From Thermococcus guaymasensis DSM 11113 (GTDB lineage: Archaea > Methanobacteriota_B > Thermococci > Thermococcales > Thermococcaceae), in the NCBI RefSeq assembly GCF_000816105.1, contig NZ_CP007140.1, positions 956,388-1,020,387 of the forward strand: DNA of 64,000 nucleotides. The letters run 5' to 3'. The notes beneath the pieces are model-generated. The model was not told the DNA's origin. It worked only from the letters and a program-made list of their open reading frames with translations, and did no database searches. The position numbers and the translations under genes are program-made. Within the stretch, counting starts at the first letter, position 1. Each line of letters begins with the position of its first letter. This document shows positions 27,676-33,253 of this stretch, one piece after another.

Positions 27676-27753
27676 TGGTGCGGTGGCCGGGATTTGAACC
27701 CGGGTTACCGGCTTGGGAGGCCGGTGTCCTAGACCAGGCTAGACTACCACCGC
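27676..27753 (-). tRNA. tRNA-Gly (anticodon CCC)
   Basis: On the minus strand the acceptor stem GCGGTGG (27753-27747) pairs with CCACCGC (27686-27680), followed by discriminator A and an encoded CCA (27678-27676). The anticodon stem CCGGC/GCCGG encloses loop CTCCCAA, giving anticodon CCC for GGG codons. The TTCAAATC T-loop is standard. It lies 12 bases downstream of tRNA-Phe and is probably processed from the same transcript. Confidence 0.95.
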
Positions 27754-27765
27754 ACTGAGAGAAAG

Positions 27766-27842
27766 TGGTGGGGCGAGGGGGATTTGAACCCCCGACACCC
27801 GGATCTTCAGTCCGGCGCTCTCCCAGGCTGAGCTACCGCCCC
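27766..27842 (-). tRNA. tRNA-Phe (anticodon GAA)
   Basis: The acceptor stem GGGGCGG (27842-27836) pairs with TCGCCCC (27776-27770), with one G-U pair, followed by discriminator A and an encoded CCA (27768-27766). The anticodon stem CCGGA/TCCGG encloses loop CTGAAGA, giving anticodon GAA. The minus-strand TATA box TTTATAAATC at 27871-27880 sits at the right distance for a start near 27850, serving both tRNAs. Confidence 0.96.
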
Positions 27843-28078
27843 ACGCCCAAAGATAAGGGAAAGGAAGAGATTTATAAATCTTGCGGTTAGCATGCCTTCT
27901 TAACTTGACACATATTGTAACTGAGAAGTTGTAAAGAGTGTTATACAATTAAGACTGAGATTAAAATTTAGTATCTAAATTCTAGATCTTGACATTTAAA
28001 AGAAGTTATCTTCAGTATTATGGCAAAAAGCTTATAAACTTTAATGAGATAAAATAAATTGCAACAACTCCTGAGGTG
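27843..28078 (+). promoter_or_regulatory. AT-rich promoter region of the accessory ABC block
   Basis: The region is markedly more AT-rich than its surroundings. It holds a perfect palindrome, AATTTAG-TAT-CTAAATT, at 27965-27981, about 50 bases before a probable TATA box, GCTTATAAACTTT, at 28030-28042. A start near 28065 would give a short leader with CTGAGGTG just before the first ATG. The minus-strand tRNA promoter occupies its left edge (27870-27880). The palindrome is a candidate operator. Confidence 0.5.
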
Positions 28079-28084
28079 ATGGCA

Positions 28085-28626
28085 ATGAAAAAATATTGGG
28101 GGTGATATTAGTAGTCCTAATAGTGGCAATGGGATTCTCAGCGACTCCAGCTAGTGCCAGAACCTTAGAAGTTGTGGCATTTGACAAGGCAAAGATAGCC
28201 GTTGAAAATGTGCAGTCAATGAGCGTCTCTGTTGGTGGAGGATACGGGGGAGTGAGTGTAGAAGTCTCGGCTACTTTCAGCTCTGATCATGGATTTGCCT
28301 TTGGTGCAGCCTTAGCTGGAATTTATGACTTGCATCTTCATAAGTATGTTTCCTTTGGAAGGGACTTTGACTATGCTGAGAAGGACTATGATACCTGGGG
28401 GCCTATTGATATAACCAGAATATCCTATGACGAAAAAATTAAGTGGACTAAAGGCATTGAGCTAAAGGGAGATCCTTATGGAGCGATATATGTTTCCACG
28501 GGATTTTATTTAAAAGTTACTAAAGTAGTCGAGAGGACATGGCCACTTAGTGACTACACGAAAGTTGTGTATGAGGACTCACATGAACTCGTTGGACTTG
28601 CATTTGGAAAAACCATCGCCACATAA
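28085..28626 (+). CDS. Predicted secreted protein, start region frameshifted by one base
   Basis: The best ribosome site (GAGGTG at 28073-28078) points to ATG 28079 or 28085, but that frame stops at 28109-28111. The long frame begins only at TTG 28096. If the run of six A after ATG 28085 had seven, the product would start MKKILGVILVVLIVAMGFSA, a textbook signal peptide cleaved near ASA-RT. So either a base was lost, a sequencing error hit the A-run, ribosomes or polymerase slip, or the weak TTG is used. The mature part (about 155 residues) is glycine- and aromatic-rich without cysteine. No family is recognised. It heads the five-gene block. Confidence 0.6.
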
Positions 28627-28639
28627 CGGGGGCTCGGAA

Positions 28640-29515
28640 ATGAGGAAGTCTCCCATCTTTTTATTCCTAATTATTTTGCTTGCTTCCCTCATGGAGGCAC
28701 CCAATAACTACTCAGTGACTGATCCGCTACCCCAGAATCTCTCCCCCATATACAACATCAGCACGACCCTCCTCTACTGGAACGGGACGGGGTACCTGCC
28801 GGTTATAACACCTGGCACGGGGGACGTCATCCTCGCAAGTGTTGGGTACAAGGCGCTGATTACCAATGTCGCAGTCTTGAACGAGAATGAGAAGGAGTGC
28901 ACGATCCGAGTGGATTACATTATAACAAAAGTTCACGGAGTGGACGTGCCAATAAACAAGACACTCTCCAAAACTTTTGTTGTTGATCTAAAAACAAACT
29001 CCTTCGTCCTGAACGGCACGACGGCGTTTTTCCCATTCTACGTATGCAACGATAACCTCAAGTACACATACCACTTCAACGATAGGATAAACGTGAAAAA
29101 ATCTGCTGATGTCATGGAATGGAAGAACGTGACCTACGGGGGAAACGTTGCCAGCGTGGAGTTCGGGCCTATCTACTCCGCGGTCGGAAAGGAGGTGATT
29201 GGGTACCTCTGTTCGGCCGCGGATTTAGAGGAGAAAAAGTGCATCAAGTTTGATCCGTATCCCGAACCTATATTGGACGTTGATTTCTCTTCGCACTACA
29301 TGGTCGGTATTTACGGCACGTTCCCCGGCGACCCCCTCGGGATTTTAAACGGGCCAATAGAACTGGTCGGGAACGTTGTTAAATCTGAGAGAACAGCAAA
29401 GCTCTTAGGTGCTAAACCCGCAACCCAGGGGGATGGTCCGAGCCAGGAATACGCAGTGGTGGGTATAATCTTGCTAACTGTCGGTGTGATCGCAGTGTGG
29501 AGGGCAAGGAAATGA
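28640..29515 (+). CDS. Type I membrane-anchored extracellular protein
   Basis: 291 residues from ATG 28640. It has an N-terminal signal-like helix (SPIFLFLIILLASLMEAP), about 230 extracytoplasmic residues with several NxS/T sites and four cysteines (in KECTI, YVCND, YLCSA and KKCIKF), and a C-terminal membrane helix (EYAVVGIILLTVGVIAVW) ending in basic residues. It overlaps the next gene by four bases (ATGA). The two-ended anchoring suggests an accessory subunit of the ABC machinery encoded downstream. No family is recognised. Confidence 0.7.
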   Translation: MRKSPIFLFLIILLASLMEAPNNYSVTDPLPQNLSPIYNISTTLLYWNGTGYLPVITPGTGDVILASVGYKALITNVAVLNENEKECTIRVDYIITKVHGVDVPINKTLSKTFVVDLKTNSFVLNGTTAFFPFYVCNDNLKYTYHFNDRINVKKSADVMEWKNVTYGGNVASVEFGPIYSAVGKEVIGYLCSAADLEEKKCIKFDPYPEPILDVDFSSHYMVGIYGTFPGDPLGILNGPIELVGNVVKSERTAKLLGAKPATQGDGPSQEYAVVGIILLTVGVIAVWRARK

Positions 29516-30294
29516 GGTGGCTCGGAAAGAGGCTGACTTCAGACCCTGGAACCATCCTGCTCGTCGTACTCTCGCCCGCGCTGGCTTACTATGGGATGTG
29601 GAGAAAGGCCAGTTCTTACTGGCCTGCGGGGCTTAACTCCCACGAAAAACTTGTCCCCTGTGGGAATACCACTCTTCCGAGAGATGTCCTCTCCCATGCC
29701 AACGAGTTCTTTTCCAAGCTCTCCAGCCTGCAGGGGGCTGCTTTTTCTGAGACCCTTCACTGGGGGCTTTTTGCTGTGTTTTTCCTCTCTGGGGCTTTCG
29801 TCGCTTACTCCTTTGGGAGGGCCCTCTCGACGGGCGATGTGATCAATGTAATACCCCTTCTCGGCTCAAAGGGGAGGACTTTTATTGAGTACTTCAAGGT
29901 TTCTCTGCTCTACGCCCTGTTCCTCTCGGGAACTTTGGCCTTCTCATCTGGGCTTATATTTGAGACGTATTCATTTAGTGTTGAGCCCAAGCTCGTGATA
30001 TCTGTGTTCTTGGCGTTTTTTGGTTCTGCTCTGTGGGGGATTTCCCTCGCCTTACTCACCCTGTCCCTGCTCAGGGAGCACGCGTCGGCGCTCCTCTCGT
30101 TGATTGGAGTGGTACTGCTAGCATCTTCGGGGGGCAATACAGGAGCAGTTCTGATGCCCTATGACCAGGTGTTCCTTTGGGTCTTTTCGGGGTTCAGGAC
30201 ATCCCCCAGTAAGTATGCCGTGCTAGGAGTCGTCCTCTCCGTGCTGAGTCTTGTGGCGGCATACCTCATATTTGAAAGGAGGGATATCGGATGA
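29512..30294 (+). CDS. ABC-2 type transporter permease (probable)
   Basis: A 260-residue multi-span protein with about six membrane helices and a large first external loop with a cysteine (KLVPCGNTTLPRD). Its layout (helix, large loop, five helices) and its genetic link to an ATPase gene suggest an ABC-2 permease, but there is no diagnostic motif. The start overlaps the previous stop (ATGA) and the stop overlaps the next start (ATGA), so translation is coupled along the block. Confidence 0.65.
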   Translation: MRWLGKRLTSDPGTILLVVLSPALAYYGMWRKASSYWPAGLNSHEKLVPCGNTTLPRDVLSHANEFFSKLSSLQGAAFSETLHWGLFAVFFLSGAFVAYSFGRALSTGDVINVIPLLGSKGRTFIEYFKVSLLYALFLSGTLAFSSGLIFETYSFSVEPKLVISVFLAFFGSALWGISLALLTLSLLREHASALLSLIGVVLLASSGGNTGAVLMPYDQVFLWVFSGFRTSPSKYAVLGVVLSVLSLVAAYLIFERRDIG

Positions 30295-30713
30295 AAATCA
30301 CGATTTTCAGGATGATGCTCATTTCATGCCTGCTCCTCTCTCTTGTCGCGGTAATTACTTACAGCCAGGCCATGGAACCGTCAGAGGCAAGTTGGGAGGG
30401 TGAGAACCTCCGCCTCCCAGGAACCTGCAGGCTGATAATGCACCCGGTACCGCTGAAGACCCTTGGAGATTATGTAGTGGACGCCACTAACGGCTCGACA
30501 ATAATAACCCCCGAGGGAGTGGAGGAGGCTCCGGAGGAGCTCCACCTTAAGGTAAGGGGAGTTTACTTTTACTATCTCGGCCCCGTGAACCAGAGCGTCG
30601 TCCTCAGGCTTACCCCAAAGCCGGAAACCGGCCGCGTTGTTACATACTTAGGCCTGACCTTTTTGGGAGGTGTTGGCGTTGCGTTCGCTTTTAGAGTGCT
30701 CGGGTTTGAGTAA
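30291..30713 (+). CDS. Small double-anchored membrane protein
   Basis: 140 residues with an N-terminal hydrophobic segment (MMLISCLLLSLVAVITYSQA), an extracytoplasmic domain of about 80 residues, and a C-terminal membrane helix (VVTYLGLTFLGGVGVAFAF). The architecture is a reduced version of the 28640 gene product. It overlaps the permease gene upstream and the ATPase gene downstream. No family is recognised. Confidence 0.65.
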   Translation: MKITIFRMMLISCLLLSLVAVITYSQAMEPSEASWEGENLRLPGTCRLIMHPVPLKTLGDYVVDATNGSTIITPEGVEEAPEELHLKVRGVYFYYLGPVNQSVVLRLTPKPETGRVVTYLGLTFLGGVGVAFAFRVLGFE

Positions 30714-31494
30714 AACGTACGGGCGCGGAAAAAGTGCCGTGAGGGCACTTGACAACGTCAGCTTCACGCTCACAGAGGGCATTTCGTACATTCTCGGGCC
30801 CAACGGAAGCGGTAAGAGCACGCTGATAAAGATACTCGCGGGCCTAATACGGCCGGACTCAGGAGAAGTAAGGATCAAGGGGCTGCCGCTTGGAGAGTAT
30901 CCGCCCAAACAAATTGGGTTTGCGTTTGAGAAGCCGGTTCTCCATCCAAGGCTGGTAGTTGGTGAACACATACGGGACGTCGCAACGTACAGGGGAGAAG
31001 ACAACAGCGAGGACTTAATCCAGATATTTGGGTTGGACTGGGTTAAAAACAAGAGGTTCGGGGAGCTTTCAATGGGTTACAAGCGCCGTTTCCTGGTTGC
31101 CCTCGCTTTCGCCGGGCTTCCTGACGTTGTGTTCCTTGATGAGCCCTTCAGCAACGTTGACATCGTGGCAAAGATGGAAATAATGGAGGGAATAAAAACC
31201 CTGCAGAGGGAGAAGGGGACTGATGTTGTTATAGTCTCCCACGTCTTTGATAACATACCCAAAATCGACTCCATGGTGGTGCTCTACGGGGGCAAGGTCA
31301 TTGCGAACCTCATTGGAGATGAGATAAGGCTCCTCAGAAAAGTCCGGTTCATCTTTCCGGATGAAGTTGTTGAAAATGACCTTAAGCGGGCCGTCCAGCT
31401 GATACAGGCAGGAAAAGAGCCCAAAGCGGTTGAGTGCGTTGGTGTTGAAGAGGGAATAATGGAACTGCTAAAAAGGAGCTCTGAGGAGGCCTAA
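30679..31494 (+). CDS. ABC transporter ATP-binding protein
   Basis: About 271 residues. No ATG fits the start; GGGAGGTG at 30665-30672 favours TTG 30679 (TTG 30673 and GTG 30670 are alternatives), inside the end of the previous gene. It has Walker A GPNGSGKST, Q-loop around IGFAFEKPVLHP, a degenerate signature (ELSMGYKRRF), Walker B VVFLDEPFSNVD and switch VIVSHV. The class resembles exporter ATPases of the CcmA/NatA type, with a C-terminal regulatory region. It should energise the adjacent permease. Confidence 0.87.
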   Translation: MRSLLECSGLSKTYGRGKSAVRALDNVSFTLTEGISYILGPNGSGKSTLIKILAGLIRPDSGEVRIKGLPLGEYPPKQIGFAFEKPVLHPRLVVGEHIRDVATYRGEDNSEDLIQIFGLDWVKNKRFGELSMGYKRRFLVALAFAGLPDVVFLDEPFSNVDIVAKMEIMEGIKTLQREKGTDVVIVSHVFDNIPKIDSMVVLYGGKVIANLIGDEIRLLRKVRFIFPDEVVENDLKRAVQLIQAGKEPKAVECVGVEEGIMELLKRSSEEA

Positions 31495-31495
31495 A

Positions 31496-31538
31496 GCCTC
31501 GGCTCAACCGTGTAAATTGTCCTGTCCTCCCGGGTGGT
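31496..31538 (-). pseudogene. 3' relic of a queC gene
   Basis: On the minus strand this reads R-E-D-R-T-I-Y-T-V-E-P-R-L-stop, matching the last residues of the intact QueC ([12 protein letters not shown]) encoded at 31897-32616. The DNA is about 75 percent identical over 26 compared bases. No QueC-like sequence continues upstream of it. It begins two bases past the stop of the ABC ATPase gene. A recombination that brought in or moved the accessory block probably left it behind. Confidence 0.6.
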
Positions 31539-31583
31539 GGGATGAAGACGCTACCCCTCACTGGGAAATTCGGATTTCAGGGC

Positions 31584-31832
31584 TCACTTTCTGAAAAGAA
31601 CCTTCAACTCACTTTTATACATTCCCCAGTTCAGCCCGAGGTGGACTATTATCAGCGCGTTCATCAGCGGCCCTAAAACATTCCTGATCCTGAAGAGCTG
31701 ATTCTTATTCATGCCAAGGAACGGATGGCCGGTTTTGGTCGTGTAGAACACTCCTACCGTGACGAACAGAACACCGAGGAATACCACAAGCAGAACCGTT
31801 GAGAGGATGGCCCGTGCCTTCACAATGTTCAT
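31584..31832 (-). CDS. Small two-helix membrane protein (DUF4405-like)
   Basis: 82 residues with two membrane helices (ILSTVLLVVFLGVLFVTVGV and VLGPLMNALIIVHLGLNWGM) and conserved-looking histidines at GHPF and IVHLGLNW. The second motif resembles the heme-binding type helices of DUF4405 proteins, but this copy is short and heme binding is speculative. The GGGGTGA ribosome site directly precedes ATG 31832. It lies between the queC relic and the intact queC, on their strand. Confidence 0.6.
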   Translation of the reverse strand: MNIVKARAILSTVLLVVFLGVLFVTVGVFYTTKTGHPFLGMNKNQLFRIRNVLGPLMNALIIVHLGLNWGMYKSELKVLFRK

Positions 31833-31896
31833 TTTTTCACCCCTTAGGGATATACTTCACCTCTATAAAAACGTTTGGAAAGAACAAAAACGCCCT

Positions 31897-32612
31897 TCAA
31901 ATCTTCGGCTCGACGGCGTAAACGGTTCTGTCTTCCCCGATGCCTTCGATAAGACCGCGGTGTCTCCTGACGCAGCTCTCGCACTCGCCACAGTGTATAG
32001 GCTTCCCGTCATCGGTGAAGCCCTTCGGCATGTAGCAGGAGTTTGAGTACTCATACTTTGCCCCCAGCTCCTTCAAAAGCCTCGCTATGCCCTTCTTGTC
32101 GAGGTCTATAAGGGGAGCGACCACCTTAACCCCGGCCATAGTCCCGTATTTCAGAGCCTCGTTCATCTTTTCGACAAACTCGGGCGTGTTGTCCGGGAAG
32201 GTTGTCCCTTCCTCTGCGTTAAAGCCCACCACTATGTCTCCACCACCGAGGGCGTCGAGGAGCGAGGCGGCAACGCTTATCAGGACAAGGTTTCTCGCCG
32301 GAACCCAAACGCTCTTTGCAGTTTCCTGGGTAACGTTCTCGTCCTCAAGCTCCTCCGCGCTCACCCTTGGGGTTTCCCCGCCAACGAGGGTCGTCCCCCT
32401 CAGCTTTGAAAACTCCTCAAGGAAGTCCAGCTTCACAATCTTAAGCGGGACGTTCAGCTCCTTCGAGAAGAACTCCGCGACCCTGTTCATAACCTTCTCT
32501 TCGTTGCTCCCGTAGTTAGCGGTGAGCATTATGACCTCGTCGTAGTTCTTTTTCGCCCAGTAGAGGCAGGCAGTTGAATCGAGCCCGCCGGAGAACAAAA
32601 CTACGGCGCGCT

Positions 32613-32616
<4 letters not shown>
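31897..32616 (-). CDS. queC: 7-cyano-7-deazaguanine synthase
   Basis: A 239-residue ATP-dependent enzyme that converts 7-carboxy-7-deazaguanine to preQ0, the precursor of archaeosine at tRNA position 15. The PP-loop [13 protein letters not shown] lies at residues 9-21. The zinc-binding cluster [14 protein letters not shown] lies near residue 215, after an upstream cysteine (NSCYMPKG). It is full length. Its start overlaps the end of the vapC-like gene by four bases (ATGA). Confidence 0.95.

Positions 32617-33253
<637 letters not shown>

What the first reader, a model, noticed from the sequence alone, without database searches (positions are those of the whole stretch)
31496..31538. Relic of the queC 3' end marks a recombination boundary
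The last 13 codons of queC recur on the same strand 400 bp from the intact gene, at about 75 percent DNA identity, two bases past the ABC ATPase stop. A duplicated gene end at the edge of an accessory block is a classic footprint of insertion or of replacement by a divergent homologous segment.
Basis: partly seen in the sequence, partly recalled or inferred. Interest (0 to 1): 0.5.

Follow-up and report, generated by a model that had tools for sequence, protein, structure and literature searches.

The report
Stranded gene end after gene replacement
A heat-loving archaeon carries the last dozen codons of an older copy of a gene just downstream of its present copy, most likely because a version from another species replaced the old gene and left its tail behind; this is a clear fossil of an ordinary kind of gene exchange.

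Summary
Window 31491-31529 (minus strand) reads EDRTIYTVEPRL-stop, a second queC 3' end 406 bp below the intact one, in frame, its stop overlapping the ABC ATPase stop by two bases. It is far beyond chance and is not the end of another gene.

Comparison of 85 queC loci shows why. In the genus queC is followed by tRNA-Phe (56 of 56 loci read), usually after 50-102 bp (39 of 56). Some genomes hold an 82-aa gene in this gap (state A); three hold the ABC operon abutting queC (state B). Only the window holds A followed by B, and the relic sits at the join: it is the tail of the queC that belonged to B. The present queC groups with A-state alleles from outside the genome's clade, while DNA on both sides resembles the clade. 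Best reading: about 1.07 kb of foreign queC + orf82 replaced the native queC, with a homologous crossover at the gene start and a join with little homology inside the old gene's 3' end. A relative (G018) keeps a more decayed tail at the same join. The reverse order of arrival is less likely but not excluded. A clean fossil; the kind of event is known.

The parts
31491..31529 (-). stranded queC 3' end: 12 codons plus stop (a 13th, CGG for Gly, may be 31530-31532)
31530..31540 (.). join between orf82 3' flank (CCACC, 31536-31540) and queC tail; resolved to a few bases
   Evidence: alignment of 11 loci; tails
31584..31832 (-). orf82, 82 aa, DUF4405; state-A slot content
31897..32616 (-). intact queC (QueC, 7-cyano-7-deazaguanine synthase), foreign allele
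   Evidence: family; origin
31536..32602 (.). inferred foreign tract (queC + orf82); upper edge between 32602 and 32643; the last 35 bases of queC within it look native-like
30670..31494 (+). ABC transporter ATPase, last gene of the state-B operon, convergent with queC
30291..30713 (+). 140-aa protein of the state-B operon
29497..30294 (+). 265-aa protein of the state-B operon, probably the membrane subunit (judged from its residues; no Pfam match)
28550..29515 (+). 321-aa protein of the state-B operon
28096..28626 (+). 176-aa protein of the block; a relative lies in the G028 slot
27870..27887 (-). ACCGCAAGATTTATAAAT box before tRNA-Phe (taken as its promoter; recalled, not tested): right edge of the slot
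27766..27842 (-). tRNA-Phe (GAA)
27676..27753 (-). tRNA-Gly (CCC), as in G032

Best explanation
The element is the 3' end of the lineage's former queC. Shown: the slot between queC and tRNA-Phe exists in alternative states (empty, orf82, ABC operon, a few others), and the window joins orf82 to the ABC operon through a leftover queC tail that abuts the ABC ATPase much as intact queC does in the three state-B genomes. Shown by tree and by sites: the present queC is foreign to the clade, with a sharp switch near the gene's 5' end. Inferred: the recipient was in state B; a linear piece of DNA with queC + orf82 from an A-state species paired with the recipient at queC's 5' end, crossed over there, and its other end, just before the donor's tRNA-Phe box, was joined to the recipient's queC 12-13 codons before its stop with little homology. 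The tail, no longer translated, then drifted (V to I and A to T at positions that are V in 53 of 54 and A in 52 of 54 genus queC proteins). It has no function that I can see.
For: In three B genomes the ABC coding match reaches to -4, 0 and +15 of the queC stop (2, 0 and 5 residues short of the protein's end), all three with queC stop TAG like the relic (TAG is 11 of 54 in the genus). Relic plus ABC end matches G032 without a break. Relatives of 51% or more of the 265-aa subunit occur in 4 of 94 genomes, in all 4 beside queC. A tree of rpoB + EF-2 + ileS puts G000 in a clade with G019, G032, G018, G062, G021, G024, G043, G065 (99/99), but its queC groups with G018, G051, G035 (99/98); queC of G000 held with the seven native rows is rejected (p-AU 0.002), whereas those seven alone are not (p-AU 0.47, control). 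Informative sites switch between 32643 and 32602, 0 of 5000 permutations as strong. orf82 DNA is nearest to G035 (92.4%) and G051 (91.6%), then G018 and G033 (90.0%), with G019 at 86.9%. On the other side tRNA-Gly is CCC as in G032 and the downstream genes align with G019 and G032. G018 has a queC-tail-like stretch at the same join, score 43 against at most 35 in 2000 shuffles.
Against: The last 35 bases of the present queC look native-like (97-100% to G019, G062, G021 against 86-91% for the A-type alleles, though G032 also has 86%), so the tract is not a simple two-breakpoint mosaic. G019, in the same clade, is itself state A, so A may have been in the lineage already. G018 shares the join but is not the sister of G000 in the three-marker tree, so a second transfer or losses elsewhere are needed. 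tRNA-Gly CCC at this place has arisen more than once (5 of 54), so it is weak evidence of shared ancestry. The orf82 tree has no starred branch. Gene trees conflict: EF-2 pairs G000 with G018, rpoB with G019/G032. The groups for the AU test and the site test were named after a first queC tree had been seen. The 36-base relic cannot name its own closest species. The broad relic search returned G018's queC but not the G018 scar.
Confidence: 0.68

Rival explanations
1. Reverse order: the genome was in state A with the present queC, and the ABC block arrived later from a B-state donor, carrying the donor's queC tail as its left edge and crossing over at the conserved tRNA-Phe/tRNA-Gly genes on the right.
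For: The join is the same under both orders; the A side is intact up to the tRNA box; near-identical tRNAs offer a ready crossover; G019, of the same clade, is state A.
Against: Leaves the foreign queC as a separate event. The ABC block, tRNA-Gly CCC and the downstream genes all look like G032, of the same clade, as expected of resident DNA.
Confidence: 0.22
2. The 400 bp with orf82 is a small mobile element that inserted into the queC 3' end and rebuilt it, the relic being the displaced end (as with attL/attR).
For: Geometry: state B would be the empty site and the two tails the direct repeats.
Against: The piece encodes only an 82-aa DUF4405 protein, no recombinase. Of the ten other aligned state-A loci only G018 shows a second tail. 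The foreign part includes the queC body, not just its end.
Confidence: 0.04
3. Local duplication of the present queC's own 3' end.
For: Same strand, short distance.
Against: The relic is less like its own queC (27 of 36) than like 34 of the other 84 tails (28 to 31 of 36), and its sequence runs on into the ABC end as in G032.
Confidence: 0.03
4. Chance match or the end of an unrelated gene.
For: It is short (39 bases).
Confidence: 0.01

Closest known systems
Homology-facilitated illegitimate recombination (HFIR)
   Same: One end joined by homology, the other without (definition seen in the abstract of PMC3240628).
   Different: Described in that abstract for three naturally competent bacteria and for E. 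coli; here inferred from an archaeal sequence, with no transformation shown.
Sequential displacement of T6SS effector modules in Vibrio cholerae
   Same: Passages of PMC5361080 propose an HFIR-like insertion that displaces a gene and shifts the old 3' part downstream.
   Different: There the retained part includes immunity genes and arrays build up; here the leftover is a non-coding 39-base tail.
Xenologous gene displacement / homologous replacement of a core gene (name recalled; listing only)
   Same: A foreign allele of queC stands at the native place.
   Different: As recalled, it need not leave a scar; here the old gene's end remains.

Membership tests
Homology-facilitated illegitimate recombination | one end of the incoming tract joined within homologous DNA | tested here: met
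   site switch between 32643 and 32602 at the queC start, 0 of 5000 permutations as strong
Homology-facilitated illegitimate recombination | other end joined with little or no homology | tested here: inconclusive
   join CCACC/ACCCGG between orf82 flank and queC tail; the exact base, and a few bases of microhomology, cannot be fixed because donor and recipient are not known to the base
Homology-facilitated illegitimate recombination | taken up as linear DNA | not testable with these tools
   needs experiment
Xenologous gene displacement | allele at the native locus has a tree position in conflict with the species tree | tested here: met
   queC against three-marker tree, p-AU 0.002; control without G000 p-AU 0.47
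Xenologous gene displacement | former native copy displaced | tested here: met
   only its 3' end remains, abutting the ABC gene as in B genomes; one queC match in each of the 86 genomes that have one. That the lost copy was the native one is inferred
Site-specific integration at a gene end | recombinase gene in the element | tested here: not met
   the 400-bp piece encodes only an 82-aa DUF4405 protein
Site-specific integration at a gene end | near-identical direct repeats at both ends | tested here: not met
   27 of 36 bases; of the ten other aligned state-A loci only G018 has a second tail

The most novel reading that the evidence does not exclude
The gap between queC and the tRNA-Phe box is a recurrent exchange slot without a recombinase of its own: conserved queC on one side and near-identical tRNA-Phe/tRNA-Gly on the other serve as anchors by which Thermococcus species swap cargo (orf82, the ABC operon, others), dragging queC alleles along; the window shows a swap that went wrong at one anchor.
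Probability: 0.35. Interest if true: 0.4.

Novelty: new member of a known kind. Interest (0 to 1): 0.3.

Why it matters
It is a readable scar: it shows that a tRNA-modification gene was swapped between species, where the swapped tract begins, and how its far end was joined, in hyperthermophilic archaea, where I found no paper on such a join in Thermococcus (open-licence library only). It also marks a variable slot next to two tRNA genes that can be followed across the genus.

Tried and rejected
End of another conserved gene: rejected. Own-gene duplication and att-type insertion: disfavoured. Naming the donor of the relic from 36 bases: inconclusive. Finding ABC-operon remains in the last 59 bases of the G018 scar: nothing above shuffles in 8 comparisons. 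Against whole B slots the G018 scar scored only at the edge of its shuffles (1, 1, 5 and 12 of 500 as high); the firmer result is the 48-base piece against 54 tails. The first three-marker tree used wrong-frame EF-2 pieces for some genomes and was redone (one search replaced). An extended match of the join to CACCGC inside queC was considered as microhomology but would need later deletions; not claimed. The loci (24 contigs) were not analysed further, since the whole genomes served better.

Rows dropped or missing: G045 (queC cut by a contig end) was not fetched, so 85 of 86 queC genomes were compared. G086, G091 and G092 have a three-residue longer tail and their ungapped counts mean nothing. 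G035 has no rpoB or EF-2 match; G048, G014, G044, G031 and G073 were not given to the EF-2 and ileS searches; these six are not in the 24-genome tree. G051 has no ileS match and G065 a partial one. In one search the contig of G035 ends about 1.8 kb below queC. The contents of the four slots that are neither A, B nor empty were not studied further.

Full report
What is there. On the minus strand, 31491-31529 reads EDRTIYTVEPRL-stop; the intact queC (31897-32616) ends [12 protein letters not shown]-stop. The two tails agree at 27 of 36 sense bases. In an ungapped scan of both strands of the window the relic scores 30 of 42 and the next place 25. Its 48-base piece scores 62 against 54 genus queC tails; 2000 dinucleotide shuffles reach 34 at most. 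The stop TAG overlaps the ABC ATPase stop TAA by two bases. No start codon precedes it in frame after the last stop, so it is not a gene.

Comparison. queC was found in 86 of 94 genomes of the family; 85 loci, the window included, were read (G045 was not fetched). In the window's genus all 56 loci read have tRNA-Phe after queC. The gap is 50-102 bp in 39 of 56 (for G040, 102 bp). Eight genomes have 401-477 bp with orf82 (state A); G018 has orf82 plus a scar (504 bp); G029, G032 and G028 have about 3 kb with the ABC operon convergent with queC (state B; the ABC match reaches to -4, 0 and +15 of the queC stop); the window has both (4054 bp); four others (G066, G068, G031, G023) have 276-2401 bp of something else. 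Relatives of orf82 at 70% or more are in 12 of 94 genomes, in 11 beside queC; in G003 it is on another contig than queC. Relatives of the 265-aa operon protein at 51% or more are in 4 of 94, all beside queC; eight further genomes have only relatives at 21-30%.

The join. The state-A alignment runs from queC through orf82 to CCACC, after which the nine other A genomes of the genus continue with the tRNA-Phe box (G018 after its scar); the window instead continues ACCCGG and the queC tail. From the tail on, the window is B-like: relic plus ABC end matches G032 at 79% over 70 bases, across the queC stop and into the ABC end (E 1.7e-10). On the far side the block ends at the same tRNA box. So the window holds a full A content and a full B content, and the relic is the tail of the queC that belonged to B.

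Which part is foreign. A tree of rpoB + EF-2 + ileS (24 genomes) puts G000 in a nine-genome clade with G019, G032, G018, G062, G021, G024, G043 and G065 (99/99), with G051 outside (G035 was not in that tree, but its partial ileS falls outside too). In the queC tree (28 rows), G000 and G018 group with G051 and G035 (99/98). Holding G000 with the seven native rows is rejected (p-AU 0.002; with G018 also held 0.007), while the seven native rows alone are not (p-AU 0.47). The groups were named after a first queC tree had been seen. Of 55 informative sites, 11 of the 13 above 32643 are native-like and 38 of the 42 from 32602 down are A-like; the best break lies between 32643 and 32602 (chi-square 28.2; 5000 permutations reach 18.8 at most). 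Downstream, tRNA-Gly is CCC as in G032 and three others of 54, and of ten compared genomes only G019 and G032 align through dmt and gcvT (G041, not among the ten, also has both genes). The foreign piece is therefore queC + orf82, about 1.07 kb, between native-like flanks. This favours replacement of queC in a B-state recipient over insertion of the ABC block into an A-state one.

Results that do not fit neatly. The last 35 bases of the present queC are closer to G019, G062 and G021 (97-100%) than to the A-type alleles (86-91%). G019 is state A within the native clade. G018 shares the join: its 48-base scar scores 43 against genus tails (2000 shuffles reach 35 at most) and stands at the same place after CCACC, yet G018 is not the sister of G000 by the three markers. 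Either the joined allele moved between the two lineages, or the event is older and was overwritten in the others. Single-gene trees conflict, which itself points to exchange in the clade. The relic search at E 0.1 returned G018's own queC tail, not the scar.

Mechanism. One homologous joint and one joint without homology is the pattern called homology-facilitated illegitimate recombination (abstract of PMC3240628); a similar displacement that leaves old 3' parts downstream is proposed for Vibrio T6SS modules (passages of PMC5361080). That this happened by uptake of linear DNA is inference. The tail has drifted since: four of its twelve residues differ from [12 protein letters not shown], two of them at sites that are V in 53 and A in 52 of 54 genus proteins.

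Literature. Searches for Thermococcus with illegitimate recombination (5 papers), queC with Thermococcus and tRNA, xenologous gene displacement with archaea, Thermococcales with recombination and tRNA genes, and two Thermococcus species by name listed no paper that, by title and abstract start, describes this locus; of 49 papers with the HFIR phrase ten were listed. The library holds open-licence papers only.

Noticed in passing
27676-27753; G000, G032, G029, G019: Two near-identical tRNA-Gly genes (2 differences, one in the anticodon) are swapped: in G000 and G032 CCC is beside queC and TCC near rpoB; in G029 and G019 the reverse. At the queC place CCC is found in 5 of 54 genomes.
   Followed up: partly
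L063 (G018), about 365 bp after queC: A decayed queC tail at the same join without the ABC operon, followed by about 59 bases of unknown origin; orf82 there has stops inside the match, by a one-base insertion near its end.
   Followed up: partly
L077 (G032) and L081 (G028): The ABC operon may be decaying: the 265-aa gene matches in two frames in G032, and several genes match in broken pieces in G028.
   Followed up: no
32613-33247: A PIN-domain protein and a MazE/AbrB-like partner upstream of queC; a vapC match is seen there in some genomes and not in others, and the stretch next to queC varies between relatives.
   Followed up: no
28096-30713: Four proteins of the ABC block have no Pfam or NCBIfam match at E 0.01; relatives of the 265-aa one at 21-30% occur elsewhere in several genomes.
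   Followed up: no
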